Positions 1,556-64,000 of a DNA stretch of 64,000 bases are shown piece by piece. The DNA comes from Chionoecetes opilio (taxonomy: Eukaryota; Arthropoda; Malacostraca; Decapoda; Majidae). Position 1 is the first letter of the stretch. Each line of letters opens with the position of its first letter. A model generated the notes under the pieces. It was not told where the DNA came from. It did no database searches and saw only the letters and a list, made by a program, of their open reading frames with translations. Made by a program: the position numbers and the translations under genes. The DNA lies in assembly GCA_016584305.1 (NCBI GenBank), contig JACEEZ010010165.1:47253-111252 (forward strand). The letters run 5' to 3'.

Positions 1556-1585
1556 TATCTATCTTTAACCTTCTATTATCTATCT

Positions 1586-1799: not shown

Positions 1800-1839
1800 A
1801 GCTCCCTAATGACACTTACTTTTAATTTTTTTTTCCTAG

Positions 1840-31246: not shown

Positions 31247-32099
31247 TTAGTGAGGCGCGTTATGAGGCTATGGACGTGAAGGCTCGCAGTCATGGTCTGG
31301 CAAGGCAACTCCGCAAAAAAACTTTTTTTTTATTCTTGGGTTTGAGACAATAATTGTGTTAGATAATTAAGCCAATATGTTTGTTATATTTTTTAGATAT
31401 GTTATCATGCTTGTTTCACGGTCCTAAGTTCGGGCTTGGCGTAACCCTTATGTATGTTTTTTATTCCATTTTTTTCCCCGTCTATCCCCTAAGCTTAGAT
31501 GTATTAGGTTTTATGTTTCTTGATTTATTGGAAGGTTTGTTCATTCATTTCAGCCGCTATTTACGCCGTCATGATGTCTGGGTAGCGGAAAGTACTCTCG
31601 GTGTTCACCCTGTGACGTCACCACTTGCCCCCGATAACACTGGTCGACAAAAAAAAATCGAAGATATGGTTCAGGACTAAATGAAGCTGATTATAGGTAA
31701 ATCGACCCTGCTGAACTCGAATCTGATGTTCAATTAACTCTATCACGTCCAGTTTTTGAGAACCAGACGCAATTCATGAAAAAATATGGGTAAAATCAGC
31801 AGAAATAGGTTTCACCAATGTTTTCATTTTAAACTCTTAATCTTTTCTTTTCTCAAGCCTATTTAGGGCAGTGCAGTGTTTTTGAGTCAGTGTGGTTTGT
31901 GCAGTGAGCAGAGGAGGGTGTGCGCTCTGCGTATTGGCGAGGGGTTAGCAGGCTGTGTAGTACATTTTTACCTACTGATCGTACAGTTATTGACATATGT
32001 TTAAACATTTTATTTTTCTTTGCAGATATGATGTGTTTGATTTAGTAGAGTCCTAATTTTAGTTGGTTTACCATATATAGTACCTTGTACCGGGCTGTG
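31247..32099. other. No gene seen; upstream of the 32.1-kb ORF
   Basis: AT-rich sequence with a frame at 31381-31680 that has no recognisable motif. The stretch 31860-32030 would be the promoter or 5' UTR region of the following ORF if it is expressed; no TATA or initiator is convincing. Confidence 0.4.
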
Positions 32100-33232: not shown

Positions 33233-33432
33233 AAAATTTACTGTGATTTGGCATATTTTCGGATATTTCCAAGATGTGGCACATTTTCGGATATATTTGG
33301 AACATAATTTAAGTATATTTTTTGCCAGATATGTACATTAGGTCCTAATAAAGCCGCAGGCACCACCAGAATTTAATTACGAGTAATATATATTAACGTG
33401 GGGGGATTGTTTCGATTAATTATATAATTATA

Positions 33433-39085: not shown

Positions 39086-39310
39086 GTGACTGTGACCACT
39101 GTTGCAGGTGCTGAGATCACAGTCCCAGCTGGCTCTCTGTGTCCTGACTGTGACCACTGTTGCAGGTGCTGAGATCACAGTCCAAGCTGGCTCTCTGTGT
39201 CCTGACTGTGACCACTGTTGCAGGTGCTGATATCACACTCCCAGCTGGCTCTCTGTGTCCTGACTGTGACCACTGTTGCAGGTGGTGAGGTCACACTCCC
39301 AGCTGGGTTT
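39086..39310. repeat. 58-bp tandem repeat, four copies, each with a splice-acceptor-like site
   Basis: The unit contains CTGTGACCACTGTTGCAG|GTGCTGAG and CAGCTGGCTCTCTGTGTC. It lies directly upstream of the zinc-finger ORF, so it may be duplicated intron-exon border sequence. Confidence 0.85.
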
Positions 39311-39371
39311 CTGCTCCATACTAAGGCATCTCGTGCCGGCATCCCTAAAGCTTCCTGCAGGACCGGCCACC

Positions 39372-40492
39372 ATGTGTTGCTGCCGCGAGTATTGCTGCGC
39401 TGGGGGTTTGTGGCAGGAGGCAGCAGCACCACCAGTGGCCGGGAGCAGCAGCAGCAGTCTGCCTCAGCTGTGGGGAGGCGCAGGGGAGGGCAAGAATCAC
39501 CTGGAGGCAGCAGCTCAGGCCAAAAAAGGGAAAGAGGCAGTTTTGCTCACATGTACTAAATCATTCAGATACAAGAGTCTGCTTGAGAGACATTTCCTGA
39601 CACACAGTGGTGTCAAGGATTATGAATGTATAGAGTGGGGGAAAATTTTTTTAAATTTGTATGTCTCATCTCAACCAACACACCCTGACACACAGTGGTG
39701 TCAAGAATCATCAATGTCTGGAGTGTGGGAAAAGATTTACTCAGAATTTTTGGGCCTCACCCGACACACCCTGACACACAGTGGGTTTAAAATTCACCAA
39801 TGCCCTGGTTTTTGGGAAAAAGTTTTACTCGCAAGTCTGTCCTCACCACGCACGCCTTGACACACAGTGGTTTGAGGGAGTTCAAATGTGATGTTTTTTT
39901 GGCAAGTTTTTTCAAGACAAAGAGGGATATTGCCAGCCACGTGAAGATTCACATGAAGCACTTGTGCAACCTGAGTACAAACATTTGGTGACAAGAATCA
40001 CCAATGTCTGGAGTGTGGGAAAAGATTTACTCAGAATGTGCCTCACCACACACACCCTGACACACAGTGGTGTTAAAAATTATGAATGTGTGGAGTGTGG
40101 GAAAAAAATTTATTCAGAAGTTCTGTCCTCACCACACACACCCTGACACACAGTGTGTTAAAAATTATGAATGTGTGGAGTTGGGAAAGATTTACTCAGA
40201 AGTCTGTCCTCACCACACCAAACCCGGGACACACAGTGGTGTTAAAAATCACCAATGTCTGGAGGTGTGGGCAAAGATTTACTCAGAAGTCTAACCTCAC
40301 CCAACACTCCCTGACACACAGTGGGAAAATAAGAAATATCAATGTCTGGAGTGTGGGAAAAGATTACTCAGAAGTTTACCCTCACCATACACGCCTTGAG
40401 ACACGTGGTTTGAGGGAGTTAAAATGTGATTTTTGTAAGAAGTGTTTCAAAACAAGAATGATATTGCCCAGCACATGAAGATCCACTTTTGA
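39372..40492 (+). pseudogene. C2H2 zinc-finger protein gene, many frameshifts
   Basis: The ATG at 39372 has a strong context (GCCACCATG). The N-terminal part is Ala/Ser-rich without a known domain. Fingers begin near 39542 (CTKSFRYKSLLERHFLTHSG) and continue as repeated HTLTHSGVKNYECVECGKK-type units. Two blocks are visible, 39542-39960 and 39990-40492, each ending in a variant finger (REFKCD...FKTKRDIASHVKIH, then LKCDFCKKCFKTR). About ten fingers in all. Frames change every one to three fingers, mostly by one-base indels in A, G or T runs, so this may be a real gene seen through poor sequence, or a pseudogene. Zinc-finger arrays bind DNA; the target is unknown. Confidence 0.8.
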
Positions 40493-41432
40493 GGGTGGTG
40501 TGTTGTGGGACAAGTGTGGTGGTAGGCGTGTGGCAATTGGTTGGTGGGGGTTTGGTGGACAGTGTGTTACATGTGTGGTGGTAGGCGTGTGGCAATGTGT
40601 GGTGGTGGTGGTGGACATTGTGTTACATGTGTGGTGGCAGGAGTGTGGCAATGGGTGGTGGTGGTGGTGGACAGTGTGGTTACATGTGTGGTGCCCGTCA
40701 GGGTGGCAAGGGTTTGGTAGAGACGTGAGTTCGCAATGTGCAGCGTCCCTGTGCATTCGGTCAGCGGTTCGAGTCCGCCTAATTCTTTGCTGACGTGCGG
40801 CGGCTTTGTATAGTCAAAAACCCTTGTAGTTTGGTACTTGCAAAGTGTCTGGGTAGGATGAAAATCTTTCTTATCTTACATGTGGGGTGGCAGGAGTGTG
40901 GCAATGGGTGGTGGTGGTGGTGGACAGTGTTTTATATGTGTGGTGGTAGGAGTGTGGAAATGGGTTGTGGTGGTGGTGGACAGTGCGTTACATGTGTGGT
41001 GGCAGGAGTGTGGGCAATGGGTGGTGGTGGTGGTGGACAGTGTTCCCTGTGTGGTGGCAGGAGTGTGGCAATGGTGGTGGTGGTGGTGGACAGTGCTTTA
41101 CATGTGTGGGGGCAGGAGTGTGGCAATGGGTGGTGGTGGTGGGACAGTGCGTTACATGTGTGGGGGCAGGAGTGTGGCAAGGGGGTGGGGTGGTGGACCA
41201 GAGTGTTACATGTGTGGTGGCAGGAGTGTGGCAATGGGTGGTGGTGGTGGACACAGTGTTACATGTGTGGTGGCAGGAGTGTGGCAAGGGGGTGGTGGTG
41301 GTGGTGGACAGAGTGTTACATGTGGGGTGGCAGGAGTGGGGCAATGGGGGGTTTGGTGGTAGGGGACACAGTTTTTACATGTGGGGGTGGCAGGAGTGTG
41401 GCAATGGGTGGGGGACAGTGTTACATATAATA
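40493..41432. repeat. About 57-bp minisatellite, interrupted by a SINE
   Basis: Units of GTGGTGGCAGGAGTGTGGCA, ATGGGTGGTGGTGGTGGTGG, ACAGTGTTACAT. About 13 units, two or three before and ten after the SINE. Long Gly/Trp/Val ORFs on plus and His/Thr/Pro ORFs on minus are translations of the repeat. Confidence 0.93.
40690..40877 (+). mobile_element. tRNA-derived SINE inserted in the minisatellite
   Basis: Contains a B-box match GGTTCGAGTCC at 40766-40776 and a weak A-box upstream. The tail TACTTGCAAAGTGTCTGGGT then AGGATGAAAATC and CTTATCTTA matches 14940-14995. The repeat array resumes right after. Confidence 0.65.
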
Positions 41433-41589
41433 TTTTGCTTAATTGTGATATAATAAGTGTATGAAATTAACACCTTTGCCCGTCTCATTTCCTGGTTTTT
41501 GTATCATATGTTTAGTCTTTGATAGCTGTAATCCGCACCGGGGCGGCACATTTTGTTTTGTAAGCAGTATCTCGCCTGTGAGGTTTCAG

Positions 41590-43640: not shown

Positions 43641-43711
43641 TCCAGTGGAGGCCAGTTTTGCGATTCCTGCCATTTTCGAACATCACTCCCTTTTCCCTTC
43701 CTATGGTTTAT

Positions 43712-44307
43712 CAGTATATATGATATACCGTTATCTTCGTAAATTTTTGTTCTATAATATTATCAATAAAAAACAGTAAAATGCAATAAAGAAATGCCAT
43801 AATGAGAGAGTTAAGAAATATGCATGAACTTAATATTCACTTGAACTCATCGCCATTTAATATTTTGCAAGAAAACATTCTAGATGCTAGCGATAGAAAG
43901 AAGCAGATTTTCATTAGCTTTCCATTGCTATATTTCGTTTTCTGATAAATGAATCATAACCATGCATAAATTAGCGTTAACTAAAAAAATAACGTCATCT
44001 ATCGGGATAATTACCCGATGGATGATGTTATTTTTTTAGTTAACGCTAATTTAGGCATGGTGGTAATTCATTTATCAGAAAACGAAATATAGCAATGGAA
44101 AGCTAATGAAAATCCGCTTCTTTCTATCGCTAGCATCTAAAATGTTTTCTCGCAAAATATTAAATGGCGAAGAGTTTAAGTATATATTGAGGTCATGCAT
44201 ATTTCTTCACTCTCTCATAATGGCATTTCTTTAGTGTATTTTACTTTTTTTTATTTGATAATATTATAGAACAAACAGTTACGAAGATAACGGTATATCA
44301 TATACTG
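43712..44307. mobile_element. 596-bp near-perfect hairpin element
   Basis: Arms of about 298 bp pair around 44010 (ATCGGGATAATTACCCGAT). Ends CAGTATATATGATATACCG and CGGTATATCATATACTG. Arms differ by only scattered bases, for example CTAGATGCTAGCGATAGAAA against its partner near 44130. No coding. Confidence 0.9.
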
Positions 44308-44759
44308 TCGGACCCCGCCGAACACGACAGTTACGGTCCTGACCCCGTCGTGCACGGCAAAATTCATGTTCGGCGAATAACAGGTTCAATAGGAAAATAG
44401 GGGTTACGTTCCCAGACCATCACTTTTTGGGGGGTCAAAAAAAAATTTCACTTTTTTTTTATAAGTAAAAAAATAGGTTACGTTCCCAGACCCTCATTTT
44501 TGGAGGGTTTAAAAAATGTTTACTACTATTTTTTGGGTGAATAAGATGAAGGAAACAAATGTTATTACAATTAAATATTTTTTTTTAATAATAAAAAATA
44601 CCTTTAAAACTAGAAAATGGTTTTCATTAACTATAAAAAAAATAGAGGTAACAGGCTGCTTTGGCTGGTGTAGCAGGAGGCATGGCTGGTGTGCTGGGTG
44701 GAGATCACTCACTGTCTGTATCATCGGATCATCAAAGCCACATAATGGGATGGGAGAGC

Positions 44760-46330
44760 AGATGACATTGATGAGGTAGTATTACTGGTGTAGCAGGAGT
44801 AACAGGCTGCCTGGCTGTGTAGTAACAGGAGGTGTAGCAGGTGTAGAATGCTTCTTGGCTGGTGTGCTGGGTGGAGAGGTTTGAAGAAAGCTGTGATGGC
44901 TTTTGGCAAGCAGAGGCCTCCATGCTCCTTAAAGTTTTCCCTTTTAGGGTATAAGGCCTTCATCCACAACTCTCTTGAATTTATGCTCCTCTCCTGTATG
45001 GGGTCTTGGTCAGTGAAGAGCTCTGTCAAGTTATTGCTTCCCTCAGCAAGTTTCTCAATTTCATGATGGTAAAAAACAGGCCTTGTCTCTGTGTCGTCAT
45101 CTTCATCAGCATCATCCCCCTGCTTGGGTCATCCTCATCTGGATAATCTCTTCCACTGAAGGCTCTGCTCCATGGGAGTCAATGATTCTGCCAATCCTCC
45201 TCAGTCATGTCAGAGAAGCCTTCACCCCCAACAGTGGGGTGCCAGGTCTACAATGTCCTTCATTTGCTGAGTGACGCAGGGAACCCATTGAAGTCGTTGA
45301 CAAAACTCAGGCCCGAGTGCATACCAACAGGCATTAAGGGTGCTTGGCTTCACTTCATCCCATGCCTGCTTGATGGTCAAAAGAGCATGTCGGATGTTTG
45401 TACTGCTTCCAGAAGTCCATGAGAGTCATCGTGCTGTCGTCTTCCATCCTCTTGAGTGCTTCTCTGTACACAGCCCTCTGGTAGTTGCACTTGAATGTCT
45501 TGATCACACCCATGTCCATAGGGTTTTTAAAAGGGAAGTTGTCCTTGGGGAAGGTAGGAAACGCACACATTCGGATGGTCCAGGTTTAAGTGCCTGTGAA
45601 GTGTGTTTCCCCCAGCATTATCCACTAGCAGAACTGCCTTAAAAGCCAGATTTTTCTTGGACATGTAGAGCTGCACTTCTGGCACAAAATGTTCATGGAA
45701 CCACTCCTCAAACAACCTTCGCTGTCACCCATGCCTTCTTGTTTGATTTCCATACCACTGACAGAAAACGCTTGTGAGTCCCTTCAGACACGTGGGTTGG
45801 CAGCACGATACACAAGGAGCGGTTTAATCTTGCGTCCCCTGCAGCATTCCCACAAACAGCAGTGTCAGACGGTCCTTAAATGCCTTGAATCCTGGTAACT
45901 TCCCTTGACTTCCTTGTTGGGTTTTAAGTCCTATTGCCCATTTTCTGTAAAATAGGCCATTTTCGTCCGCATTGACACCTGCTCAGGTAGGTAGTCACTG
46001 TCTTCAATCAGGGACTTGAAGGTGCTGAGGTTATGCCGCGCCCCTTCCTTATCAGCTGACCCACTCTCACCTGTGAAAAAAACGAAGAAAAAACCTTTTT
46101 TATTATGGGAATATGGCAATCAATAGATAGATTTGATAGAAGTGTGAAAAAATATTTAATGCTCTTCATTACGGGAATATAGACGAGTCAATATTAGATA
46201 GATAGAAGTGTGAAAATATATTGAATGTTTTTACCTGTGCGAGCAATGTTGTGCAGGCTAAAAACGCTGCATGAATCTATGGAACCACCCATGGGGTGGC
46301 AATAAACCCGGGGGCAGGGGGGGATCCGAA
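44760..46330 (-). pseudogene. Tigger/CENP-B-type DDD transposase, frameshifted, one intron
   Basis: On minus the first exon reads WFHRFMQRF, then (one base shifted) SLHNIARTG to a donor GTAAAAAC at 46233. After a 160-bp intron ending TTTTTTTCACAG, it reads ESGSADKEGARHNLSTFKSL and YLPEQV. The catalytic blocks then follow: VNADENGLFYRKW (about 45975-45940, frame shifted), AFKAVLLVDNAGGN (about 45640-45600) and NPMDMGVIKTFKCNYQRAVY (about 45520-45460). These are the three Asp-bearing motifs of Tigger/pogo DDE enzymes. The helix-turn-helix DNA-binding N-terminus is not found. It would cut and rejoin transposon ends; this copy cannot be functional as read. Confidence 0.83.
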
Positions 46331-46499
46331 GGCTCCTTCTCTGCTAGGTGGTCGTAGATGTCCTCGCCTTTTCCTGATGGCTAACGGGCCCTCCACGTTG
46401 CTCTTCCGCTGTCCACTTGCTCTGATATCCACCTGTTATGCGTAAATGACAAGAAAAAAACAATGCGTAAATACAATGGTATGTACAACGGTATGCCTC

Positions 46500-47220
46500 A
46501 ACACACACCCCACCCCATGCATGCATGCTAACACACCTGCACTACACCACACACACACACACATGCATGCATTAACAAAACTAAGTAGCAACAAACACAC
46601 ACACACAACACCAACAACACCACACAACAACACACACAACACACACACACACACGCCTCAAAACAGCCCAAAAACCACCCCCACTGTTAACACACCTGCA
46701 CGTAGCACGAACAACACACACACACACACACAGCCCCAACACAGCCACACCCCCGCAGCACCTGTTAACACACCTGACGTAGCAAAAACAACAAAACACA
46801 CACACACACACAACACAACACACCAACACAAACACACAAACACACACACACATGCCTCAACACAAACCCAAACACGCAGCAAACCCTTAACACACCTGCA
46901 GTAGCACGACACACACACACACACACAAATGCCTCAACACCAGCCCACCCACCACCAGACACCTGTTAACAAACCTGCAAAGTAAAACACAACACACACA
47001 CACACATGCCTCAACACAGCCCACACCACCGCAGACTGTTAACACACTGCCCCGTAGCACAAAAACAACACACACAACACACACACACCGTAGTTTAAAA
47101 TCGTAGTAACATAGGTAATAAACATACTTTATTCATATGAATATAATTAATCACCCGTAAAACCCTTACACACCCCCGAGCACCTGTTAGCACACCACAT
47201 GTAGCAACACACACAATAAC
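46500..47220. repeat. CA-rich minisatellite, units of about 75-95 bp
   Basis: Each unit has a (CA)n block, then CCTCAACACAGCCCA-type text and TTAACACACCTGCAGTAGCA. About seven units. ORFs on both strands are repeat translations. Confidence 0.9.
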
Positions 47221-47799
47221 ATAAACTTTAAATTATATGAAAAACATTAACTCCACCGTTTATATTTCTCCATCTTCTCTAGCAGCGGGTCACGTCGGCT
47301 CACAGAAGCCCTGCTAGAGACACAGCACTCCCCTCGCACGCTTTGTCTTATTTTTCACCGGGGCTTCCAGATGGTACGAACAGTGGCCCCTCATGCAGGC
47401 CAAAACTTTTGCCCTAGCAGACCAGCCAGGCCACTACAATCACAACAAGCACATCCATCTCCTCCGCTAGGAAACACTTTCCTCTCTTTGCTTGACCCCG
47501 GAGTAGGTGGAGCCGAACGCTTGAAAGACATGGCCAGCAGGGCAGCACGACGTGAGGCACAGCGCACGAGCAGGAGAGAAGACTACGTGTAGCAGCTCTG
47601 GCGCCCAGGGTGAGCGTTCCCAGCTTGTCCGGCCCAAAATGCCGCCGACAGCATCCCCAAAAACATCCCCGGGAAAATTAAATTGTGTTATCGCGAGTAA
47701 AACTCGTTTCGGCAAATATGGATATTTTACCCATTCGTGTAAAGGGGAGTTTCCCGGCAGGGCGAACTCGTGTTGGCGGGTCCGACAGTTACGAAAACC

Positions 47800-48755
47800 T
47801 TAGGAAAGGAAATAGGGTGATGTTAAAAAATGGCAGAATCCAAATGGCCTCCCCTGGTCATGGGGGGTTGGCGCGGGGCACGAGTAGCAAGTTCAGTATA
47901 GAGTAGTCCCCCTTGGTCCTGCACTTAAGTTTATATCTTTATCAGTAAAATATGATATCCTTTTTTTGTCAAGGTCAAATGTTTCAAGCGGCCTTTATGT
48001 GACTATTTTATACGGTGTGATCTTGGTTGAATGGCGATATGAAACCTGTCAACAATTATACATGTGGTGTATCAAAACAGAGTTGGTGTTAAGAAGACAA
48101 CATGTAACGAGCTGGTTAGCGGAAAACTCGGCTATCCCCTTACTGCTCTCATCCTGGCTAAACAGCGCAAATTTTTCAGGGAAATGGGGAGAGAGAAGAA
48201 GGGGAATGGCTGAAGACCTTGGTTCATGCCATGCATATCACGCTCGTCACGCCTGTCATATCTCACGCTATTTAGAGGGCATCCTCAACAACGGAAGGAC
48301 GTGTGCACATTGCATGGAGAAAAGAAAGCAAAAATATTAAATCACAGCGAATAAATGATCATCTATATTCAAACTATATTCACGATTAACCCTGACCTTT
48401 CTGTACATGAAATATATAGATCAAAAGTAGTTAAGAAAACAAAGAATCTCATTTGGACTCGCTTTAAAAAAATGAGTGCGCACTCTCTCGCTGTTGAGGA
48501 GGCGATGGAAACGGGAGGCCCGAGTCGTCTGCCACTAGAAAAAGTCTGTGTTCCTGTGGACACATTCAAAACGACAAAAATGTTTTAAGGGATTGTGGTT
48601 TTTAACATCAATATACGCCACAATTTTATGTGTCGACGTTGAAAACTTAATGCTGGAGAGGAATGACTTTGCCAAATGTAGTACTATCCTACACCGTATC
48701 CTTTCAGAGTTTATATAGTTTTTTGTTTTATATTAGTATTTAGTTCTTGTTGTTT
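47800..48755. other. Two unassigned frames, no supportable gene
   Basis: Frames at 47966-48340 and 48355-48588 (+) are the longest. The first ends HARHACHISRYLEGILNNGR then CAHCMEKRKQKY; the second reads KKTKNLIWTRFKKMSAHSLA then VEEAMETGGPSRLPLEK. Neither matches a family I know. They could be decayed or very young exons; chance is as likely. Confidence 0.3.
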
Positions 48756-48760
48756 TAGTA

Positions 48761-50440
48761 CAGTCAAACCTCGATATAACGGACTAAGGGGGAGGAGGAA
48801 ATCCATTAAAATAGCCCGATTGTCCGTTATTAGCGAGGGTATTTTCCCAAGGGGGAAAAAAATATGAAAAAACGGAAAAATTGTGAAAAATGAGAAATTT
48901 AAACACAAACACAACCCGACTGTGTAGCTATGTTTGGAGGTAACACAACAGCCCGGCACACTCTGAATTTGGTCCGCTCCTACACGTGAAATAATGAAGA
49001 AATAATCACAAAACAACCAGAACGTGTTAGTGTAGTCAAACTCAAACTCTAGGAAGGTAAGCAATTACTACGAGCAGATTCAGCCGTTTGGGTTCCAAAG
49101 GGATTGCTATTATCATGCTATTCATTATTTATATATATTATAGGTTGTGAACTGAGTTCTATACAGTTACACTATTTAGGTCAGTGTAGCACTGCGTGCG
49201 CCTTAGTAAGGGTGTTTAGGGTGTTGAGGTTAAGGGGAGACGTTAGCACGGCCACGCCATAACACTAATAGTCACTGTTTTAAACAATACAGCCCAAATC
49301 CCAAACATCCGGGCTTTTCCAAACAACCGACTTTTTCACCACCACATTGTGTCTTGTTTGGCCATTTATTTTACTTAGTTTTTTTTAGTTTTAGAAAGTA
49401 TTGTTGTGGCTTATTTATGCATGGAATTTTTCTTTAGCGATACCACGGGTCGGCCCTTCAAGAGCTGACTTTTATGTTCTATCCATTTTGTCCTTACGTT
49501 TATGGTACTGTGATATTCCGAACACCGACTATTCCAATTTTTGGGCCTTTCCTTCGGTCCCCCAAAGGGCGGTAATTAATTACTTAGCTGTACACACCTT
49601 CTACCACTAAATCAATAGCAACACAGGCTCCTTTAATATTATATTAACACCTTCACTGCAGATATCAAATCAAGGCCTACTCCCCTGTGCGGCAGGTTTA
49701 ATTAAAATTAAAATAATTTTTCTGATCATAATTTTAAAGGCCTAAAATGGAATAGAATGCTCATTCCATACCAGAAATCTATGTTTGGTCTTGGTGGAGG
49801 TACCAGCTAAGTTGAAAGTTTCCCTTTAAAGTGCAGCAACAAAGGGCGTGAACGTGCTGCCAGACGCACAATTTAAACTACTTTCTACTCAACATAATAC
49901 AGCTTATTTGTACATAATGCTTTCATTCAGCATTCATTCCATACATCTGTTTAATCCATCAAGAAAAATTTGAATATCTTGCTATTTAGCCTCGCCATTG
50001 AATAGGAGGGCGAGCAGCGTTTAACACGTCGTTTCTGTAACGTTGACCTTATTAGTCCCCTCACTCCGCAAGCAGAAAAAGATTTTATTATATCACAACA
50101 TTGACAAATGTTGCCATACAAGCCTATTACAACAATATTTACCATAATATCATGAGCAACGCATTTAAATACAGAAACCATATATGTACCAGCCGCAGTG
50201 AACCCTTAAATAGCTGAGAGACCGTATTTGTACCAGCCGCAGTGAAGGGGTTAATATGTGATACATCAAAACTCATTAAAACCCAAGCATTCCAAAATAA
50301 AATGAGAAAATACAATAATGTTAGTGAAAAATTTTTCGAAAATGGCGATAACGGGCTAATATGCAAAAAAAAAAAAAAAAAAAAAAAGTCACGCAAATGG
50401 AGTCCGTTACATCGAGGTCCGTTATATAGAGGTTTGACTG
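48761..50440. mobile_element. Tigger-like non-autonomous transposon, 1.68 kb
   Basis: Termini CAGTCAAACCTCGATATAAC (48761) and the complement of CAGTCAAACCTCTATATAAC (to 50440), with TA on both sides. The CCGTTAT/ATAACGG motif repeats inside both ends. A poly(A) tract (50366-50386) lies near the right end. It contains another MITE. Confidence 0.88.
49644..50254. mobile_element. TTAA-flanked MITE nested in the Tigger-like element
   Basis: Starts TTAACACCTTCACTGC and ends GCAGTGAAGGGGTTAA; 611 bp. GTACCAGCCGCAGTGAA is repeated inside the right end (50187 and 50230). Termini resemble the 212-bp TTAA family but the interior is different. Confidence 0.78.
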
Positions 50441-51270
50441 TACTCGTATTTTCGTCTTTGATGTTTTATTGCTTGTCTGATTTTATTGATGTTTTGTGGT
50501 ATTCGTGATGGCGTTTTTTTTTGTGTAGTTTTCAGTTTTTTATAAAAAAGAAATAATAGTTTTTAATATTCCATTTAAGTATTTTCCATTTTTTAGTATT
50601 CTGTTTTAGTATTTTCAGTATTTTAGTATTCAGTTTTTAATTGTTTATTGCTTGTTTAGGTTTTTACAAATTTATTGTAGTTTTCATTGATTCTTTTTCA
50701 TTGATGCTCATAATTATTGCACTGATTTTTGTAAAAGGAAAAATTTCTTGCGTTTTAGTGTTTGAGTGATGATTGAAGACCTCATTGTCAGAAAGTAGAT
50801 TTGAAGGATTATATGTGCGCATGTGAGAAACTGTTTTTTGTAAACTTTACTGTTAAAACACTTTTGTGGACCATTTAACTGATTATTATGTGTTGTTGCA
50901 CAAGCTTTGTAAATTGTGGTCAATAAATGATCTATCTATCTATATATCTATCTGTGGTTGTAGGAGTGGTGGGTGTGTGAGTAGGAGTGTTGTAGGTGAT
51001 GACATGCATGGTGGTGGTGGTGAGGTATTGTCGGCTGGCTTGGACCTGGGGCATAGGATTTTTTTTTTAAAATTTTTATTATTATTATTATTATTATTTT
51101 ATTTTTACAGAACAAAAGACTGGCCAAGTTTTTTTTTATTTTTTAGTTTTTTATAAATAACTATACATGTTTGTCTTGTTTAGGTTTGTTTATAGTTCAT
51201 GCTTTAGTGTTGTTTACCGTGCACACCACCACCTTAAACAGGTCATGTCTATGTAATACAAGGATATTAA
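50441..51270. other. No gene seen; retroelement tails
   Basis: Contains a TCAATAAATGATCTATCTATC tail (50920-50950), typical of a LINE 3' end, and an (ATT)n run followed by AGACTGGCCAAG (51075-51127), similar to the Jockey-like 3' UTR start. No coding sequence. Confidence 0.5.
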
Positions 51271-51318
51271 ACAGGTTATTCCTACAGCAGCATTTCCCCG
51301 CCACTACTTACATGACTT

Positions 51319-54300
51319 CACTGAGATATTTCTACTGGGATATTTATAGGAGCACTGAGATATTTCTACTGGGATATTTATAGGAGCACTGAGATATTTC
51401 TACTGGGATATTTATAGGAGCACTGAGATATTTCTACTGGGATATTATAGGAGCACTGAGATATTTCTACTGGGATATTTATAGAGCACTGAGATATTCC
51501 TACTGGGATATTTATAGGAGCACTGAGATATTTCTACTGGGATATTTATAGGAGCACTGAGATATTTCTACTGGGATATTTATAGGAGCACTGAGATATT
51601 TCTACTGGATATTTATAGGAGCACTGAGATATTTCTACTGGGATATTTATAGGAGCACTGAGATATTTCTACTGGGATATTTATAGGAGCACTGAGATAT
51701 TTCTACTGGGATATTTATAGGAGCACTGAGATATTTCTACTGGGATATTTATAGGAGCACTGAGATATTTCTACTGGGATATTTATAGGAGCACTGAGAT
51801 ATTTCTACTGGGATATTTATAGAGCACTGAGATATTTCTACTGGGATATTTATAGGAGCACTGAGATATTTCTACTGGGATATTTATAGGAGCACTGAGA
51901 TATTTTCTACTGGGATATTTATAGGAGCACTGAGATATTTCTACTGGGATATTTATAGAGCACTGAGATATTTCTACTGGGATATTTATAGGAGCACTGA
52001 GATATTTCTACTGGTATATTTATAGGAGCACTGAGATATTTCTACTGGGATATTTATAGGAGCACTGAGATATTTCTACTGGTATATTTATAGGAGCACT
52101 GAGATATTTCTACTGGGATATTTATAGGAGCACTGAGATATTTCTACTGGGATATTTATTTGGAGCACTGAGATATTTCTACTGGGATATTTATAGGAGC
52201 ACTGAGATATTTCTACTGGGATTTTTTATAGGAGCACTGAGATATTTCTACTGGGATATTTATAGGAGCACTGAGATATTTCTACTGGATATTTATAGAG
52301 CACTGAGATATTTCTACTGGGGTATTTATAGGAGCACTGAGATATTTCTACTGGGATATTTATAGGAGCACTGAGATATTTCTACTGGGATATTTATAGG
52401 AGCACTGAGATATTTCTACTGGGATATTTATAAGAGCACTGAGATATTTCTACTGGGATATTTATAGGAGCACTGAGATATTTCTACAGGGATATTTATA
52501 GGAGCACTGAGATATTTCTACTGGTATATTTATAGGAGCACTGAGATATTTCTACTGGTATATTTATAGGAGCACTGAGATATTTCTACTGGGATATTTA
52601 TATGAGCACTGAGATATTTCTACTGGGATATTTATAGGAGCACTGAGATATTTCTACTGGGATATTTATAGGAGCACTGAGATATTTCTACTGGGATATT
52701 TATAGGAGCACTGAGATATTTCTACTGGGATATTTATAGGAGCACTGAGATATTTCTACTGGGATATTTATAGGGGCACTGAGATATTTTCTACTGGGAT
52801 ATTTATAGGAGCACTGAGATATTTCTACTGGGATATTTATAGGAGCACTGAGATATTTCTACTGGGATATTTATAGGAGCACTGAGATATTTCTACTGAG
52901 ATATTTATAGGAGCACTGAGATATTTCTACTGGGATATTTATATGAGCACTGAGATATTTCTACTGGGATATTTATATGAGCACTGAGATATTTCTACTG
53001 GGATATTTATAGGAGCACTGAGATATTTCTACTGGGATATTTTTATAGCACTGAGATATTTCTACTGGGATATTTATATGAGCACTGAGATATTTCTACT
53101 GGGATATTTATATGAGCACTGAGATATTTCTACTGGGATATTTATAGGAGCACTGAGATATTTCTACTGGGATATTTATAGGAGCACTGAGATATTTCTA
53201 CTGGGATATTTATATGAGCACTGAGATATTTCTACTGGGATATTTATAGGAGCACTGAGATATTTCTACTGGGATATTTATAAGAGCACTGAGATATTTC
53301 TACTGGGATATTTATAGGAGCACTGAGATATTTCTACTGGGATATTTATATGAGCACTGAGATATTTCTACTGGGATATTTATAAGAGCACTGAGATATT
53401 TCTACTGGGATATTTATAGGAGCACTGAGATATTTCTACTGGGATATTTATATGAGCACTGAGATATTTCTACTGGGATATTTATATGAGCACTGAGATA
53501 TTTCTACTGAGATATTTATAAGAGCACTGAGATATTTCTACTGGGATATTTATAGGAGCACTGAGATATTTCTACTGGGATATTTATATGAGCACTGAGA
53601 TATTTCTACTGGGATATTTATAGGAGCACTGAGATATTTCTACTGGGATATTTATAGGAGCACTGAGATATTTCTACTGGGATATTTATAGGAGCACTGA
53701 GATATTTCTACTGGGATATTTATAGGAGCACTGAGATATTTCTACTGGGATATTTATATGAGCACTGAGATATTTCTACTGGGATATTTATAGGAGCACT
53801 GAGATATTTCTACTGGGATATTTATATGAGCACTGAGATATTTCTACTGGGATATTTATATGAGCACTGAGATATTTCTACTGGGATATTTATATGAGCA
53901 CTGAGATATTTCTACTGGGATATTTATAGGAGCACTGAGATATTTCTACTGGGATATTTATATGAGCACTGAGATTTTCTACTGGGATATTTATAGGAGC
54001 ACTGAGATATTTCTACTGGGATATTTATAGGAGCACTGAGATATTTCTACTGGGATATTTATAGGAGCACTGAGATATTTCTACTGGGATATTTATATGA
54101 GCACTGAGATATTTCTACTGGGATATTTATAAGAGCACTGAGATATTTCTACTGGGATATTTATAAGAGCACTGAGATATTTCTACTGGGATATTTATAT
54201 GAGCACTGAGATATTTCTACTGGGATATTTATAAGAGCACTGAGATATTTCTACTGGGATATTTATATGAGCACTGAGATATTTCTACTGGGATATTTAT

Positions 54301-54488
54301 AGGAGCACTGAGATATTTCTACTGGGATATTTATATGAGCACTGAGATATTTCTACTGGGATATTTATATGAGCACTGAGATATTTCTACTGGGATATTT
54401 ATAGGAGCACTGAGATATTTCTACTGGGATATTTATAGGAGCACTGAGATATTTCTACTGGGATATTTATAAGAGCACTGAGATATTT
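51319..54488 (+). repeat. 34-bp satellite, left arm, about 93 copies
   Basis: The unit is ACTGAGATATTTCTACT + GGGATATTTATAGGAGC, two related 17-bp halves sharing GATATTT. Variants of the AGGAG position are GGAG, TGAG and AAGAG. The outer third is nearly all GGAG, while the inner half mixes the three. Confidence 0.97.
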
Positions 54489-54829
54489 CATGTTATTTAT
54501 TGATCAATATTTTGTTGCCATGACAGTTTGTGTGTGGCATGAAGGAGTGATGGAGTGAAGAAATGGTGTTGTCTTAAGGCCGGTTCCCACCAGTCCCCTT
54601 GTACGGCCGCCGCTGCCGTTCCCCGCCCAACACTGACGTCACCATCACCACCACTGGAGTGGCTGTAGTGGTAACCGGCCTTTAGGGGTCAAAATGCAAC
54701 ACTGGCCTGTACAAGATGACCTCTGATGACCTCTAAGGTGTTGCAGGGTCATTCACAAGCCAGGTGACAGGTGAGAGGAGGAGAACTGTATGTTTTGTTC
54801 TATTGTATGTACAGATTTTACTACCGTAC
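54489..54829. repeat. Unique arm sequence of the foldback element, left
   Basis: Reverse complement of 58240-58550 with few differences (for example GTCCCCTTG against CAAGGAGAC). It contains a small PIF/Harbinger-like MITE. Confidence 0.92.
54574..54684. mobile_element. Small PIF/Harbinger-like MITE inside the arm
   Basis: TTA flanks AGGCCGGTTCCCAC at the left and GTGGTAACCGGCCT at the right. It is present in both arms (partner at 58357-58468), so it was there before the arms were duplicated. Confidence 0.65.
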
Positions 54830-55072
54830 ATAACACTAAAGTCGCCAGTCACTCGCCACTGCACTAATGTCGCCAGGCACAACATATTCAAATTTTAGCA
54901 TCACTACAGCCTTTTATGTGTCACTGAAGAGACATGCACAGTAGTTTATATTATGTACATCACACTACATATCTTCAGTGGCACATAAAAGGCTGTAGTG
55001 ATGCTAAAATTCATAATGTATTGTGCCTGGTGACATTAGTGCAGTGGCGAGTGACTGGCGACTATAGTGTTA
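54830..55072. mobile_element. Hairpin MITE in left arm only
   Basis: TAACACTAAAGTCGCCAGTC and its complement close to 55070 form the ends; arms pair around 54950. Absent from the right arm. Confidence 0.85.
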
Positions 55073-55295
55073 TCTAGGGTGGTAATGCTATGCTAGATTA
55101 ATAGAGGATCAATTGTCAAAGAGCTGCTCTAGATATTTATCAGATATTTTCTTAAATATATTTATAAAAAAAACTTATGAACATCAATATTTTATGAGCT
55201 ACATATATTTAGAAGTAAAAAACCATGAGTTAAATTCTCGAGTGCTGATTCATAATTGCTTTAAAAAATATAGTGTATAGCCTAGTCTATTTTTT

Positions 55296-55634
55296 TTATT
55301 ATGGTCAAAATGCAGTAAGGAAGCCATGCCCCCTGCCTGCCCTTCTATTCTACAGGGCAGCTGATTGGTGCATTCCTCGTATCATCACTACCAATCACAA
55401 TATCTTCACTACTTAACAGCAGCGTGACCACTGGACAGCAATCTTCACTACAGAGGGTGACAAAATCAAAAAACCCTTTGTAGTGAAGATTGCTGTCCAG
55501 TGGTCACGCCGCTGTTAAGTAGTGAAGATATTGTGATTGGTAGTGATGGTACGAGGAATGCACCAATCAGCTGCCCCGTAGCATAGAAGGGGAGGCAGGG
55601 GGCGTGGCTTCCTTACTGCATTTTGACCATAATA
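55296..55634. mobile_element. Hairpin MITE in centre of the foldback element
   Basis: TTATTATGGTCAAAATGCAG faces its complement at 55615-55634; arms of about 165 bp meet near 55465. Arms are about 95 percent alike by eye. Confidence 0.9.
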
Positions 55635-56091
55635 AATAAAATGGACTCTAGTATCAAATGTGTGAGGGAGTTAAGACAAAAATAATGGTATAAAAATAAA
55701 AATAAAACTTTGGATCTATAGAATAAAAATAAAGTTACAGCCAGACAAGAACAGATCAGTTCCATAAAACAATACATATATATTATACTAATTCAATATA
55801 TTATTATAATCATATAATAGTAATACAATTTAATATAATAATCAAATAAATAATACTCTATAGTGAGGCAAAAGTTGAGGTTTTTTAGTTAAATATTTAT
55901 CACAAAAAAAATAGCAAAAATACCAAAAAAGTAACAAAAAAAAGTCAACAAACTGTATTAAGTCTAAAATGCCTCCCAACCTCTCCGGAGACAGACTGAT
56001 GGAATGATTGAAGACAAAGTAATATGCTGGAGCAAGTTTATTTACACGTAAAACACATAATGTACATTGCTACAGGCATAGACTGTCATGA

Positions 56092-56265
56092 TTATGTGTG
56101 TAGTGAGTGTGTCTGTGAGGGAGGCTGTGTGTCGCCTGTGTCTGTGAGGGAGGCTGTGTGTCTCCTGTGGTGTTTTATATACTGTGGGGAGACATACTGT
56201 GGCTCCTGTGGCTGTGGTGAGAGAGAGAGAGAAAGAAAAGAGAGAGGAGAGAGAGAGAGAGAACT
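56092..56265. repeat. GTCTGTGAGGGAGGCT repeats and (GA)n
   Basis: Two to three copies of GTCTGTGAGGGAGGCTGTGT followed by a (GA)n tract at 56218-56265. Confidence 0.85.
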
Positions 56266-56308
56266 TATATGTTCAGACAATTTCATATATTTCCTAAACA
56301 ACAACAAC

Positions 56309-56925
56309 TCGGATCTTCAAGTCGCTTGTGATCCCTGTCTTACTCTATGGTTGTGAGACATGGACACTAAATAGCGACTTGAAGAGACTAATCGATGCCT
56401 TTGGTAATAAGTGTCTTCGCAGAATCATGGGGTATCGCTGGGATGATTACGTGTCAAACCAGCGATTGCACCGTGACACTGAATCGAGGCCTATTACCTG
56501 CATAGTCCGTCAGCGCTAACTTGGGCTACATGGGCATGTGGCACGCTACACTGAAACCGATCCTTCCCATCGGGTTGTATCTGTAAGAGACAATCCGGCG
56601 TGGAGGAGGCCAAGGGGGCGCCCACAAGGCTCTCGTGGCTGGGGCAAGTTGATGCTTCTTGTCGAGAGCTGCTTGGTGTAGAAGGCAGCCTGCATGGGGA
56701 CTGCTTGGTATGGGAAGGCAGCCTGCATGGGGACCCCCTGGTGTGGGAAGGCAGCCTGCATGGTGACCCCCTGGTGTGGGAAGGCAGCCTGCATGGGGAC
56801 TGCTTGGTATGGGAAGGCAGCCTGCATGGGGACTGCTTGGTATGGGAAGGCAGCCTGCATAGTGACCCCGGGAGTGACGCCATAGGGTGGGTGAGGCGAT
56901 CAATCCCCAATGATTGATGTACAGT
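56309..56925 (+). pseudogene. RTE-like RT C-terminal fragment with an internal coding-derived minisatellite
   Basis: Reads VIPVLLYGCETWTLNSDLKR, CLRRIMGYRWDDYVSNQRLH to RPITCIVRQR, almost identical to 12747-13277 complement. After a stop at 56518, the frame continues with SVRDNPAWRRPRGRP-type text and VDASCRELLG. Then a 33-bp segment is amplified six times. It ends GATCAATCCCCAATGATTGA, the RTE tail. It lies in the centre of the foldback element. Confidence 0.85.
56681..56878 (+). repeat. 33-bp in-frame minisatellite, six copies
   Basis: Unit GAAGGCAGCCTGCATGGGGA + CTGCTTGGTATGG; it encodes GSLHGDCLVWE or GSLHGDPLVWE. It derives from the ELLGMGKEPAWE segment of the RT. Confidence 0.92.
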
Positions 56926-57024
56926 AAGGACACACTGTTGTCACTCTAGATGTACTGTAAGGACATACTGTTGTCACTCTAGATGTACTGTAAGGACATG
57001 CTGTTGTCACTCTAGATGTACTGT
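56917..57024. repeat. 33-bp tandem repeat, about three copies
   Basis: Unit GATGTACTGTAAGGACATAC + TGTTGTCACTCTA. It begins at the RTE tail and may have been seeded by it. Confidence 0.88.
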
Positions 57025-57407
57025 TAACACGGCAATAATACGTCTAATACAAATACACACGGCAAGCGAGTTTAAGTTCTTTTCATGATTTCCTTTTGCC
57101 TAATCTCTGGACGCTCTTCTAAGTATTATGACTTACAAAAGTAATATTGTTTTACTTCTAAATATATGTAGCTAATAAAATAGTTCTAATTTACCGTATG
57201 AATAATGGACTTTTACTAACTAACTAAATAACTCATGGTTTTTTACTTCTAATATATATAAATATTTATATATCTAAATATCTTTAAAATAAATATATAT
57301 CTAATAAAATATTGAAGTTCATAAGAATTTTTTGTTATATATGTAGTGAAAATATCGAAGTTAAATGTCTTGATTACGGCTCCAAAAACTGATCCTCTAT
57401 TAATCTA
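57025..57407. repeat. AT-rich right arm segment of the foldback element
   Basis: 57220-57407 is the reverse complement of 55080-55250 (CTCATGGTTTTTTACTTCTA; TGATCCTCTATTAATCTAG). The part at 57150-57190 repeats some of it. Confidence 0.75.
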
Positions 57408-58240
57408 GTCTAGCATTACTAGTAACAACTGTCTGTACACTAGAATGAGCAGCATAATGACAGTGTGGGAAGTCTAGTCTAGCATTACTAGTAACAACTG
57501 TCTGTACACTAGAATGAGCAGCATAATGACAGTGTGGGAAGTCTAGTCTAGCATTATTAGTAACAACTGTCTGTACACAAGAATGAGCAGCATAATGACA
57601 GTGTTGGAAGTCTAGTTTAGCATTATTAGTAACAACTGTCTGTACACAAGAATGGCGCATAATGACAGTTTTGGGGGAAATTTTATCTAGCATTATTAGT
57701 AACAAATGTCTGTACACAAGAATGAGCAGCATAATGACAGTGTTGGAAGTCTGTCTAGCATTTACTAGTAACAACTGTCCCGTACACAAGAATGAGCAGC
57801 ATAATGACAGTGTGGGAAGTCTAGTCTAGCATTTCTAGTAACAACTGTCTGTACACAAGAATGAGCACATAATGACAGTGTTGGAAGTCAGTCTAGCATT
57901 ACTAGTAACAACTGTCTGTACACAAGAATGAGCACATAATGACAGTGTGGGAAGTCTAGTCTAGCCTTACTAGTACCCAAATGTCCCGTACACAAGAATG
58001 AGCAGCATAATGACAAGTGTGGGAAGTCTAGTCTAGCATTATTAGTAACAACTGTCTGTACACAAGAATGAGCAGCATAATGACAGTGTTGGAAGTCTAG
58101 TTTAGCATTATTAGTAACAACTGTCTGTACACAAGAATGAGCAGCATAATGACAGTGTTGGAAGTCTAGTCTAGCATTACTAGTAACAACTGTCTGTACA
58201 CAAGAATGAGCAGCATAATGACAGTGTGGGAAGTTGTTAC
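57408..58240. repeat. 69-bp tandem array, about 12 copies, right arm only
   Basis: Unit GTCTAGTCTAGCATTACTAG, TAACAACTGTCTGTACACTA, GAATGAGCAGCATAATGACA, GTGTGGGAA. The first base block derives from arm sequence. Units at 57640-58020 carry many small indels. Confidence 0.93.
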
Positions 58241-58550
58241 AGCAAAAAATACAGTTCTCCTCCTCTCACCTGTCGCCTGGCTTGTGAATGACCCTGCAAC
58301 ATCTTAGAGGTCATCAGAGGTCATCTTGTACAGGCCAGTGTTGCATTTTGACCCCTAAAGGCCGGTTACCACTACAGCCACTCCAGCGGTGGTGATGGTG
58401 ACGTCAGTGTTGGGCGGGGAACGGCAGCGGCGGCCGTACAAGGAGACTGGTGGGAACCGGCCTTAAGACACCATTTCTTCACGCCATCACTCCTTCATGC
58501 CACACACAAACTGTCATGGCAACAAAATATTGATCAATAAATAACATGAA

Positions 58551-59150
58551 ATATCTCAGTGCTCTTATAAATATCCCAGTAGAAATATCTCAGTGCTCCT
58601 ATAAATATCCCAGTAGAAATATCTCAGTGCTCATATAAATATCCCAGTAGAAATATCTCAGTGCTCCTATAAATATCCCAGTAGAAATATCTCAGTGCTC
58701 CTATAAATATCCCAGTAGAAATATCTCAGTGCTCTTATAAATATCCCAGTAGAAATATCTCAGTGCTCCTATAAATATCCCAGTAGAAATATCTCAGTGC
58801 TCCTATAAATATCCCAGTAGAAATATCTCAGTGCTCCTATAAATATCCCAGTAGAAATATCTCATTCCTAAAATTCCCAGTAGAAATATCTCAGTGCTCA
58901 TATAAAATCCCATAGAAATATCTCAGTGCTCATATAAATTCCCCGTAGAAATATCTCAGTCTCCTATAAATATCCCAGTAGAAAATTTCCCGTGCTCCTA
59001 TAAATTCCCCTAGAAATATCTCAGTGTCATAAAAATCCCAGTAAAATATTCGTGCCCCCTAAATATCCCCGTAGAAATATCTCAGTGCTCCTATAAAATC
59101 CCCGTAGAAAAATCTCAGTGCTCCTAAAATATCCAGTAGAAATATCTCGG
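58551..59150 (-). repeat. 34-bp satellite, right arm, about 17 copies
   Basis: Same unit as 51319-54488 in reverse complement. The first nine units are clean; from 58860 outward units carry frequent single-base losses. Confidence 0.95.
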
Positions 59151-59237
59151 TGAAATCATGTAGTAGTGGCGGGGGGAAAAGCTGCTGTAGAATAAACATT
59201 AAATATAACTAAAGGACTTTTTTCCCATCAATCTTCT

Positions 59238-59436
59238 TTAACCCCCTTTGGGGGCCCGAACAATTTCCATTGTAATTTTGGGGACCATTAGACGATTTTT
59301 AGTGACTAAGTTATTTTTTAAACTAGCCGTTTTGACCTTTTCCATAACTCATTTGGTTATTTAGTTATTTTTGTATTTTAGGGTAACAACGACCATTTTT
59401 TATAGCAAGGAAAGATCTGGGCGTGAAGGGGGTTAA
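59238..59436. mobile_element. TTAA-flanked MITE, piggyBac-like, copy 3
   Basis: Same orientation as 1586-1799: TTAACCCCCTTTGGGGGCCC at the start and GGGCGTGAAGGGGGTTAA at the end. More diverged or more error-laden than the other copies. Confidence 0.75.
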
Positions 59437-60149
59437 AGTTTGCACATAAACCCTAGTGGCGAAAAAATAATTTGATATGAACAAAACTCATTCATCTTAA
59501 GGTCTCATGCTTAAAATTGCCTTGTTTTTCCTATAAAGGGGGCAACTAAGGGCTTAAAAAAAATTTTTACAAAAACCTTTTTTTTCCCCAAAAAACTTTT
59601 AAGGAAAAAAAATTAGTATTCCCTTCTCCCCGGATCAAAAATCTCATGATGCCCATGTTTACCTCAAATAGGGTTAACTATGATAAAAAACAGCGACTTA
59701 AGAAGAAAAAGTAGTATTCCCTTTTGGCACAAATATCAGTCAGTAAACAGCAAGGGGGCACCTTTTTCACCTCATTAAAAAAAAACTGTCTAGTTATTCA
59801 CTTATAACCTTAAATAATTATAAAACTAAACCCCACACATAATATACACTTAGTTTTCTGTAGACAATATGGGGGGGTGTGTGAGGGGGGGGGGGAGGAA
59901 ATTTTTTTTGGGGAAAATTATGGTTAACTTTGGCCGCCCTTTTTTTTTTTTATTTTTTTTAAACCGGACCGGGATGTGGGTTTTTTAGTTGGTTTGGGTT
60001 TTTGTGGGTTTTTGTTTTGTTTTTTGGGGTCCCAACCAACCCCCACTCGGGGGGGCCAACCATCGGTTCCTGCCTTTTGGGGGGGTGTGGTGGGGGGCTG
60101 TGGGGGGGGAAGGCAGGGGGGGCCCCTTTTTTGTTAAAGGGGGGGGGGT
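59437..60149. other. No gene seen; low-complexity
   Basis: Homopolymer-rich AT and G tracts. ORFs at 59959-60296 are translations of G/C runs. Confidence 0.5.
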
Positions 60150-60845
60150 GAGTCCACCCCCACACTCACCACCATGGGCCTGCCTGGCTTTTTGTGGGGA
60201 AGGGAGGGGCTGTGGTGGTGAGTCCACCACCACACTCCCACCATGGCCTCCTTGGTTTTGGTGAAGGAGGAGTGTGTGTGGTAGTCCACCACCCACTCAC
60301 CCCATTGGTCCTGCCTGGCTGTGGGGGTTTTTGGTGAAAGGGGGGACTGTGTGTGGTGAGTCCACCACCACACTCACCACCATCGGTCCTGCCTGGCTGT
60401 GGTGACTGTGGTGAAGGCGGGGCTGTGTGTGGGAGGCCACCACCACACTCACCACCATCGGTCCTGCCTGGCTGTGGTGACTGTGGTGAAGGCGGGAGCT
60501 GTGTGTGGTGAGTCCACCACCACACTCACCCCCATCGGTCTGCCTGGCTGTGGTGACTGTGGTGAAGGCGGGAGCTGTGTGGGGTTTGAGTCCACCACCA
60601 CACTCACCACCATCGGCCCTGCCTGGCTGTGGTGATTGTGGTGAAGGCGGGAGCTGTGTGTGGTGAGGCCCCCACCACACTCACCCCCATTGGTCCTGCC
60701 TGGCTGTGGTGTTTGTGGTGAAGGGGGGGAGCTGTGTGTGGTGAGGCCATCACCACACTCACCACCTTTGGGTCCTGCCTGGCTGTGGTGGTTGTGGTAA
60801 AGGCGGGAGCTGTGTGTGGTGAGGCCTGGCTGTTGAGTCTTCTGT
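60150..60845. repeat. About 77-bp minisatellite, nine copies
   Basis: Unit GGCTGTGGTGACTGTGGTGA, AGGCGGGAGCTGTGTGTGGT, GAGTCCACCACCACACTCAC, CACCATCGGTCCTGCCT. ORFs on both strands are repeat translations. Confidence 0.93.
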
Positions 60846-63814: not shown

Positions 63815-64000
63815 GACTCCGTAGTGTAGTGGTTAGCACGCTCGGCTCACAACTGAGAAGTCCCGGGTTCGATCCCCAGGCGGAGCAAAGATAGATGGGT
63901 GGTCTTTCTTAAAACCCGAGCCCCTGTCCACCCAGCAGTGAATGGGTACCGGGTGTTAGCTGGGGGTTTGTGACCCCCCTCCCGGGGTGGTGGCTTCGGC
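63815..64000 (+). mobile_element. tRNA-Val-derived SINE, cut by the window end
   Basis: The head (63815-63887) folds like a tRNA: A-box TAGTGTAGTGGTTAGCA, anticodon stem CTCGG/CTGAG with loop CTCACAA (CAC, Val), B-box GGTTCGATCCC at 63866-63876. Acceptor ends GACTCCG and CGGAGCA mismatch at the outer two pairs and no CCA-type end is expected. The body contains CACCCAGCAGTGAATGGGTA, which I recall from crustacean SINEs. Confidence 0.85.

What the first reader, a model, noticed from the sequence alone, without database searches (positions are those of the whole stretch)
51275..59203. Giant foldback element with 34-bp satellite in its inverted arms
Outer ends, satellite arrays, unique arm sequence and inner AT-rich arm sequence all pair across about 7.9 kb. 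Order on both sides is terminus, satellite, 340-bp unique block, then an AT-rich block. Insertions differ between the arms, so the structure is old enough to have gained separate events. The design matches Foldback (Drosophila) and Galileo-type elements, which have long, internally repetitive terminal inverted repeats, but I know of no described element with this satellite. No transposase is visible, so it would be non-autonomous.
Basis: partly seen in the sequence, partly recalled or inferred. Interest (0 to 1): 0.92.

Follow-up and report, generated by a model that had tools for sequence, protein, structure and literature searches.

The report
Satellite-bearing palindrome beside zinc-finger genes
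A big DNA palindrome in an animal genome (probably a crustacean's) sits behind one branch of a large zinc-finger gene family and seems to have been copied along with those genes, while its two arms appear to copy each other and to grow short tandem repeats.

Summary
The inverted structure is real: arms 51264-55231 and 57139-59206 share terminus, 34-bp array, unique block and AT-rich block (416 bits without the arrays; at most 28.3 in 100 shuffles).

The mobile-Foldback reading is partly supported. Relatives lie on at least 57 contigs, the window's included; 17 of 18 close pairs of a junction motif are inverted. But independent sites were not found. In 15 of 28 copies read, a C2H2 zinc-finger array and a 56-bp minisatellite lie upstream on the same strand; 10 more share part of a flank of this context; one is cut off by LINE-like sequence; two share a second context. 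Zinc-finger and palindrome contigs coincide in 15 of 36 cases (0.1 expected). No convincing target duplication was found.

The arms seem to exchange sequence: separate left and right lineages are rejected (p 1e-4), and a 105-bp insert is in both arms of ten copies, neither arm of five, one arm of two. Homogenisation is uneven. In 22 of 29 arms measured only 27-74 bp lie between terminus and unique block, so the long array is not a family feature.

Best reading: an old foldback-like palindrome spread with a zinc-finger gene branch, its arms partly homogenised by gene conversion.

The parts
51264..51318 (+). left outer terminus of the palindrome (about 44-55 bp), paired with 59153-59206
   Evidence: present in many copies
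51319..54489 (+). left 34-bp array, about 93 units, 97% matches
   Evidence: unit variants
54489..54829 (+). left unique block of the arm
   Evidence: tree
54577..54681 (+). 105-bp inverted-repeat insert (MITE-like) inside the left unique block, TTA on both sides; empty site read in L013, L015, L017 (both arms) and L024, L026, L028 (left arm)
   Evidence: end coordinates read off the sequence
54825..55085 (.). palindromic insert (MITE1), left arm only in the window; related inserts in some other copies
55082..55231 (+). left inner AT-rich block, paired with 57139-57182 and 57290-57419 (77-86%)
   Evidence: shuffle control
55284..55647 (.). 364-bp palindromic insert (MITE2) in the middle domain, shared with many copies
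56290..56670 (+). fragment like the 3' end of a non-LTR retrotransposon in the middle domain, shared with many copies at about 87-95%
   Evidence: named from its likeness by eye to the frame at 12747-13277, which lies near a frame with an RVT_1 match; the fragment itself has no Pfam match
56669..56869 (+). 33-bp tandem repeat next to the retrotransposon fragment
57139..57419 (-). right inner AT-rich block
57404..58234 (+). 69-bp array, about 12 units, right arm only; about one unit in most other copies compared, some 45 by span in L014
58236..58550 (-). right unique block of the arm (carries the same 105-bp insert at 58359-58463)
   Evidence: insert coordinates read off
58548..59152 (-). right 34-bp array, about 18 units, many single-base losses in its outer half
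59153..59206 (-). right outer terminus
51008..51272 (+). left flank shared with other copies (A flank), 84% to L022
59207..60892 (+). right flank shared in pieces with other copies (C flank, then a 78-bp minisatellite)
39276..40478 (+). C2H2 zinc-finger array upstream of the palindrome, spread over broken frames in the window copy
   Evidence: long open arrays in relatives
40510..41426 (+). 56-bp minisatellite that follows the zinc-finger array in related copies too

Best explanation
It is an old foldback-like palindrome fixed downstream of one branch of a large C2H2 zinc-finger gene family. Its copies spread mainly because the gene with its downstream region was duplicated again and again, not because each palindrome jumped on its own. 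Inside a copy the two arms can overwrite each other by gene conversion, and short units in the arms expand into minisatellites. In the window copy a 34-bp unit, flanked by a 14-bp direct repeat in ordinary copies, grew to about 93 units in one arm and 18 in the other. Shown: shared gene context in 15 of 28 copies, arm pairing, lack of separate arm lineages, an insert found in both, one or neither arm, and unequal expansions. Inferred: duplication of the whole unit as the spreading mechanism, conversion as the homogenising mechanism, slippage or unequal exchange for the arrays, and an original DNA transposon as the source of the palindrome.
For: Zinc-finger array and 56-bp minisatellite upstream on the same strand in 15 of 28 copies read. 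Of 36 contigs with the best 40 zinc-finger 3' ends, 15 (the query's own contig included) carry palindrome hits, 0.1 expected, p 3e-30. Copies collinear beyond the palindrome: L009 with L012 in blocks from 194 to 9506, partly through simple repeats; L022 with L027, possibly alleles, over 13.2 kb at 94%. Arms: holding all left arms together is rejected (log-likelihood 104 lower, p 1e-4); WIN_L, WIN_R and L014_R form one clade (97/95), L013's two arms another (99/96), the four arms of L015 and L017 another (95/83). The 105-bp insert is in both arms of ten copies, in neither arm of five (L013, L015, L017, L042, L043), and in the right arm only of L024 and L026. Different expansions: 34-bp in the window and L014, a variant of about 8 units in L012's right arm, 20-bp in the right arms of L015 and L017, 29-bp in an arm terminus of L045, 69-bp in the window and L014.
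Against: 13 of 28 copies do not show the zinc-finger array in the DNA fetched: 5 reach only the minisatellite or part of the A flank (L011, L015, L017, L046, L047), 5 only the right or another shared flank (L013, L014, L021, L023, L044; in L021 and L023 little more than 30 bp of it beside a dispersed repeat), L016 is interrupted, L043 and L045 lie in another context. Two of three further zinc-finger loci have no palindrome in about 3.7 kb. Homogenisation is uneven. Of 15 copies with both arms, against copies I did not count as sisters, the own arms are the most alike in 6 (window, L012, L013, L015, L017, L022), mixed in 3 (L009-L011), and in 6 (L018, L019, L020, L024, L026, L027) the left arm is nearer another left arm. 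L014, with one arm only, was not in that comparison; its right arm is 99.0% like each window arm, which are 98.0% like each other. Side labels are somewhat clustered on the tree (15 and 11 of 500 shuffles as low), which near-copies also cause. Some pairs may be alleles.
Confidence: 0.68

Rival explanations
1. A non-autonomous Foldback or Galileo-type transposon family in the full sense: each copy is an independent insertion moved in trans by a transposase that recognises the arms.
For: Architecture; many copies with inverted arms 1.3-5.9 kb apart; TTAA close to both ends in many copies and a 7-of-8 match ATTAAACA/ATTAAATA at the window's ends (read by eye); two different contexts, the zinc-finger one and that of L043 and L045; zinc-finger loci without the palindrome.
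Against: Flanks are shared among copies; no constant target duplication established; no copy read was shown to lie in a site of its own.
Confidence: 0.14
2. A giant mobile element that carries the zinc-finger gene as cargo; the palindrome is one internal part and the true ends lie beyond the DNA read.
For: Homology between copies runs past 13 kb for one pair and copies lie on many contigs.
Against: No common outer end was found; zinc-finger loci without the palindrome exist; different copies break off at different points.
Confidence: 0.08
3. Two independent copies of a satellite-bearing unit landed in inverted order by chance, or the right arm is a fold-back read chimera.
For: The right array and right flank look like a low-accuracy consensus.
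Against: The same inverted order recurs on other contigs, and the window's arms carry different inserts.
Confidence: 0.02

Closest known systems
Galileo (P superfamily, Drosophila mojavensis; PMC3573991, passages read)
   Same: Long inverted arms, tandem repeats in the arms that differ in number between the two arms of one copy; the authors propose that long arms attract recombination and conversion.
   Different: Most Galileo copies have 7-bp target duplications and the family has a transposase; here flanks are shared, no transposase is known, and copies are linked to a zinc-finger gene.
Tetris (Foldback-like element of Drosophila virilis; PMC4079207, passages read)
   Same: Apparently non-autonomous, arms with a terminal part, tandem repeats and an inner part; the arm repeats expand into longer arrays.
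   Different: Tetris has 8-10 bp target duplications and about 220-bp units; here 34-, 69-, 20- and 29-bp units and no established target duplication.
Sea urchin TU elements (recalled; the search found no paper on them, only PMC4079207, which names sea urchin foldbacks)
   Same: Recalled: arms with an outer tandem-repeat domain and an inner unique domain.
   Different: Recalled: mobile with 8-bp duplications and 15-bp units; not compared by sequence.
Gene-converting palindromes, e.g. a human Y palindrome (PMC3723533, listing and start of abstract only) and Caenorhabditis inverted repeats (PMC1803023, abstract and outline)
   Same: Arms kept alike, in the human case by gene conversion.
   Different: Those inverted repeats include genes or gene pairs (for the human Y partly recalled); here the arms look non-coding and lie behind a gene.

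Membership tests
Foldback-type transposon (FB, Galileo, Tetris, TU) | long inverted arms with internal tandem repeats | tested here: met
   dozens of 34-bp units only in the window copy and L014 among arms measured
Foldback-type transposon (FB, Galileo, Tetris, TU) | copies in unrelated genomic sites | tested here: not met
   25 of 28 copies read share at least part of one flank of the zinc-finger context, 2 share a second context, 1 cannot be judged; copies not read are untested
Foldback-type transposon (FB, Galileo, Tetris, TU) | target-site duplication of constant length | tested here: inconclusive
   window ends ATTAAACA/ATTAAATA (7 of 8) or TTAA, by eye; other copies differ by several bases at the junction; no clean empty site found
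Foldback-type transposon (FB, Galileo, Tetris, TU) | transposase in some copy | not tested
   open frames of nine loci were printed (output partly cut) but not searched against transposase families
Foldback-type transposon (FB, Galileo, Tetris, TU) | middle domain of variable size | tested here: met
   spacing between the two junction motifs 1.3-5.9 kb in 17 pairs
Gene-converting palindrome | arms of one copy more alike than same-side arms of different copies | tested here: inconclusive
   so in 6 of 15 copies with both arms, mixed in 3, not so in 6; all-left-arms-together rejected
Gene-converting palindrome | mutations passed between arms | tested here: met
   same 105-bp insert at the same place in both arms of ten copies, in neither arm of five, only in the right arm of L024 and L026; repeated insertion at one base is the alternative
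C2H2 zinc-finger gene family unit | C2H2 array upstream | tested here: met
   in 15 of 28 copies by motif scan or blastn; Pfam zf-C2H2 with 12 and 14 separate stretches in L041 and L035; weak, below cut-off, in the window's broken frames

The most novel reading that the evidence does not exclude
The palindrome is not a passenger: its hairpin-forming, self-converting arms make the locus break and re-duplicate, and so drive the amplification of this zinc-finger gene branch.
Probability: 0.12. Interest if true: 0.75.

Novelty: new variant of a known kind. Interest (0 to 1): 0.5.

Why it matters
It gives a natural series of dozens of palindromes of one descent, with arms caught at different stages of exchange, next to a large family of DNA-binding proteins. 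That makes it possible to test how often palindrome arms convert each other, how arm repeats seed satellites, and whether palindromes help gene families grow.

Tried and rejected
Exact search of 26 bases of the satellite in viral contigs and genome contigs: nothing. Rfam on the window at gathering threshold: one tRNA only. Read artefact and chance pairing were set aside because of other copies and shuffles. The reading of 51275 and 59203 as true element ends was dropped when flanks proved shared. A clean empty site was sought in three zinc-finger loci chosen from then on contigs without a palindrome hit: L048 does carry the left arm; L049 and L050 carry no palindrome but differ too much to mark the joint. 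The outer pairing of L043 at 849-924 with 3178-3095 was set aside because that stretch lies in a high-copy repeat. The species was not identified: the protein search found 561 proteins among 7961 scored candidates, 120 listed, one of them from Procambarus clarkii at 52%; a crustacean genome is my impression.

Rows left out: L021, L023 and L025, with short unique blocks, were not in the tree of 33 arms; L014, L016 and L028, with one arm each, were not in the comparison of 15 copies. DNA searches score only 40 candidates, so their counts are lower bounds. Literature: five searches of an open-access library listed no account of this satellite or of such a palindrome beside zinc-finger genes; subscription journals are mostly missing.
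Full report
Observation. Minus-strand blastn pairs 51264-51962 with 59206-58531, the inner array end and unique block with about 59152-58238, and the AT-rich blocks within 55082-55231 and 57139-57419 at 77-86%. TRF gives 93.4 units of 34 bp on the left, 18.4 on the right and a 12-unit, 69-bp array in the right arm alone. The unique plus inner blocks score 416 bits, against at most 28.3 in 100 dinucleotide shuffles.

Relatives in the host genome. The genome is held (1.94 Gb, 20818 contigs). A terminus query gave 63 matches on 34 contigs, many of them within the window's own arrays; the unique block gave 41 matches on 29 contigs, with 1400 first-look candidates of which 40 were scored. A 26-base junction motif with up to two mismatches gave 68 matches, 34 on each strand, none for the reversed control, on 49 contigs. 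Together these are 57 contigs, the window's included. Of 18 neighbouring pairs closer than 10 kb, 17 are inverted, 1.3-5.9 kb apart. Many copies share the same middle: a 364-bp palindromic insert, an AT-rich stretch and a fragment like a retrotransposon tail.

The flanks. DNA outside the supposed ends is shared between copies. I read 28 copies: the window, L009-L028 and L042-L048. In 15 (window, L009, L010, L012, L018, L019, L020, L022, L024-L028, L042, L048) a C2H2 zinc-finger array and a 56-bp minisatellite lie upstream on the same strand. Five reach only the minisatellite or part of the A flank (L011, L015, L017, L046, L047). Five show the right or another shared flank only (L013, L014, L021, L023, L044); in L021 and L023 that is little more than 30 bp beside a dispersed repeat. 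L016 shares 35 bp and then runs into DNA that reads, by eye, like the retrotransposon frame at 5471-6592. L043 has the first 99 bp or so of the C flank on both sides; L045, of which one end was fetched, shares L043's outer right flank, and that 631-bp stretch matches over at least 592 bp in four loci. L010/L011, L015/L017, L019/L020, L022/L027 and others may be alleles of one locus.

Test of the gene link from the other side. A 156-bp query at a zinc-finger 3' end of L022 gave 168 matches, among them 40 loci matched over 154-156 bp on 36 contigs; 15 of these contigs, the query's own included, carry palindrome hits, against 0.1 expected (p 3e-30, and 3e-15 if only 2000 contigs counted). Of three such loci on contigs without a palindrome hit, one (L048) has the left arm and two (L049, L050) have none in about 3.7 kb. 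So the link is with part of the family. Relatives hold long open zinc-finger frames of 444 and 542 residues, whose true starts are unknown; the window's frames are broken.

The arms. A tree of 33 unique blocks does not separate left from right arms: 8 changes of side, at least 5 forced by supported branches, though sides are somewhat clustered. Holding all left arms together costs 104 log-likelihood units, p 1e-4. The window's two arms and L014's right arm form a clade (97/95), L013's two arms another (99/96), and the four arms of L015 and L017 a third (95/83). Among 15 copies with both arms, compared with copies I did not count as sisters, a copy's own arms are the most alike in 6 (window, L012, L013, L015, L017, L022), mixed in 3 (L009, L010, L011), and in 6 (L018, L019, L020, L024, L026, L027) the left arm is nearer another copy's left arm. 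The window's arms are 98.0% alike, against at most 95.7% and 96.4% in that set; but L014's right arm, outside it, is 99.0% like each.

A 105-bp insert with TTA on both sides is in both arms of ten copies (window, L009-L012, L018-L020, L022, L027), in neither arm of five (L013, L015, L017, L042, L043), and only in the right arm of L024 and L026; the empty site was read letter by letter in L013, L015 and L017 and in the left arms of L024, L026 and L028. One insertion copied between arms explains this more simply than repeated insertion at one base.

The satellite. Of 29 arms in which terminus and unique block were both found, 22 have 27-74 bp between them, about one or two units; the others are the window (3177 and 611 bp), L014 right (1744), L015 right (380), L016 left (293), L012 right (292) and L017 right (154). 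The units differ: 34-bp in the window and L014, a variant 34-bp in L012, 20-bp in L015 and L017; L045 has a 29-bp array in an arm terminus and the window and L014 the 69-bp array. The innermost unit types of the window's two arrays and L014's agree at the first two units, as copying between arms would leave them, but this is short.

Verdict. It works like the arms of Galileo and Tetris, whose arm repeats also expand and, for Galileo, whose long arms are thought to attract conversion (passages of PMC3573991 and PMC4079207). I do not file it as a Foldback transposon, because independent sites were tested in 28 copies and not met and no target duplication was established. An origin as a transposon remains open. 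The most economical account is an old foldback-like palindrome that spread with a zinc-finger gene branch and is partly homogenised by conversion.

Noticed in passing
58870-60150: Right half of the right array and the right flank look like low-accuracy consensus: many single-base losses and long homopolymer runs (by eye).
   Followed up: no
41430-50945: About 9.5 kb lies between the minisatellite and the A flank in the window but not in L009, L018 or L022; it ends in an (ATCT)n tail like that of a non-LTR retrotransposon (by eye).
   Followed up: partly
L043 (C4863:14300-18700), L045 (C9004:226000-228500): Second context: L043 is a compact copy with part of the C flank on both sides, bounded by GA/TC microsatellites; its outer right flank recurs in L045 and two more loci.
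   Followed up: partly
L045, about 1230-1460: 29-bp tandem array inside an arm terminus, another separate repeat expansion.
   Followed up: partly
59237-59440 and many loci: Roughly 110-210 bp repeats beginning TTAACCCCTT, lying at TTAA next to the palindrome ends in several copies (lengths by eye).
   Followed up: partly
63815-63887 (+): tRNA gene by Rfam.
   Followed up: no
13817-14437 (-), 15308-16234 (+), 5471-6592 (-): Retrotransposon frames: RVT_1 twice and Exo_endo_phos_2.
   Followed up: no
32085-33233 (+), 8260-9387 (+): Open frames of 382 and 375 aa without a Pfam match at E 0.001.
   Followed up: no
L049, L050: Zinc-finger loci without the palindrome have a different minisatellite and an AATAAA signal about 400-420 bp after the stop codon (by eye).
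   Followed up: partly
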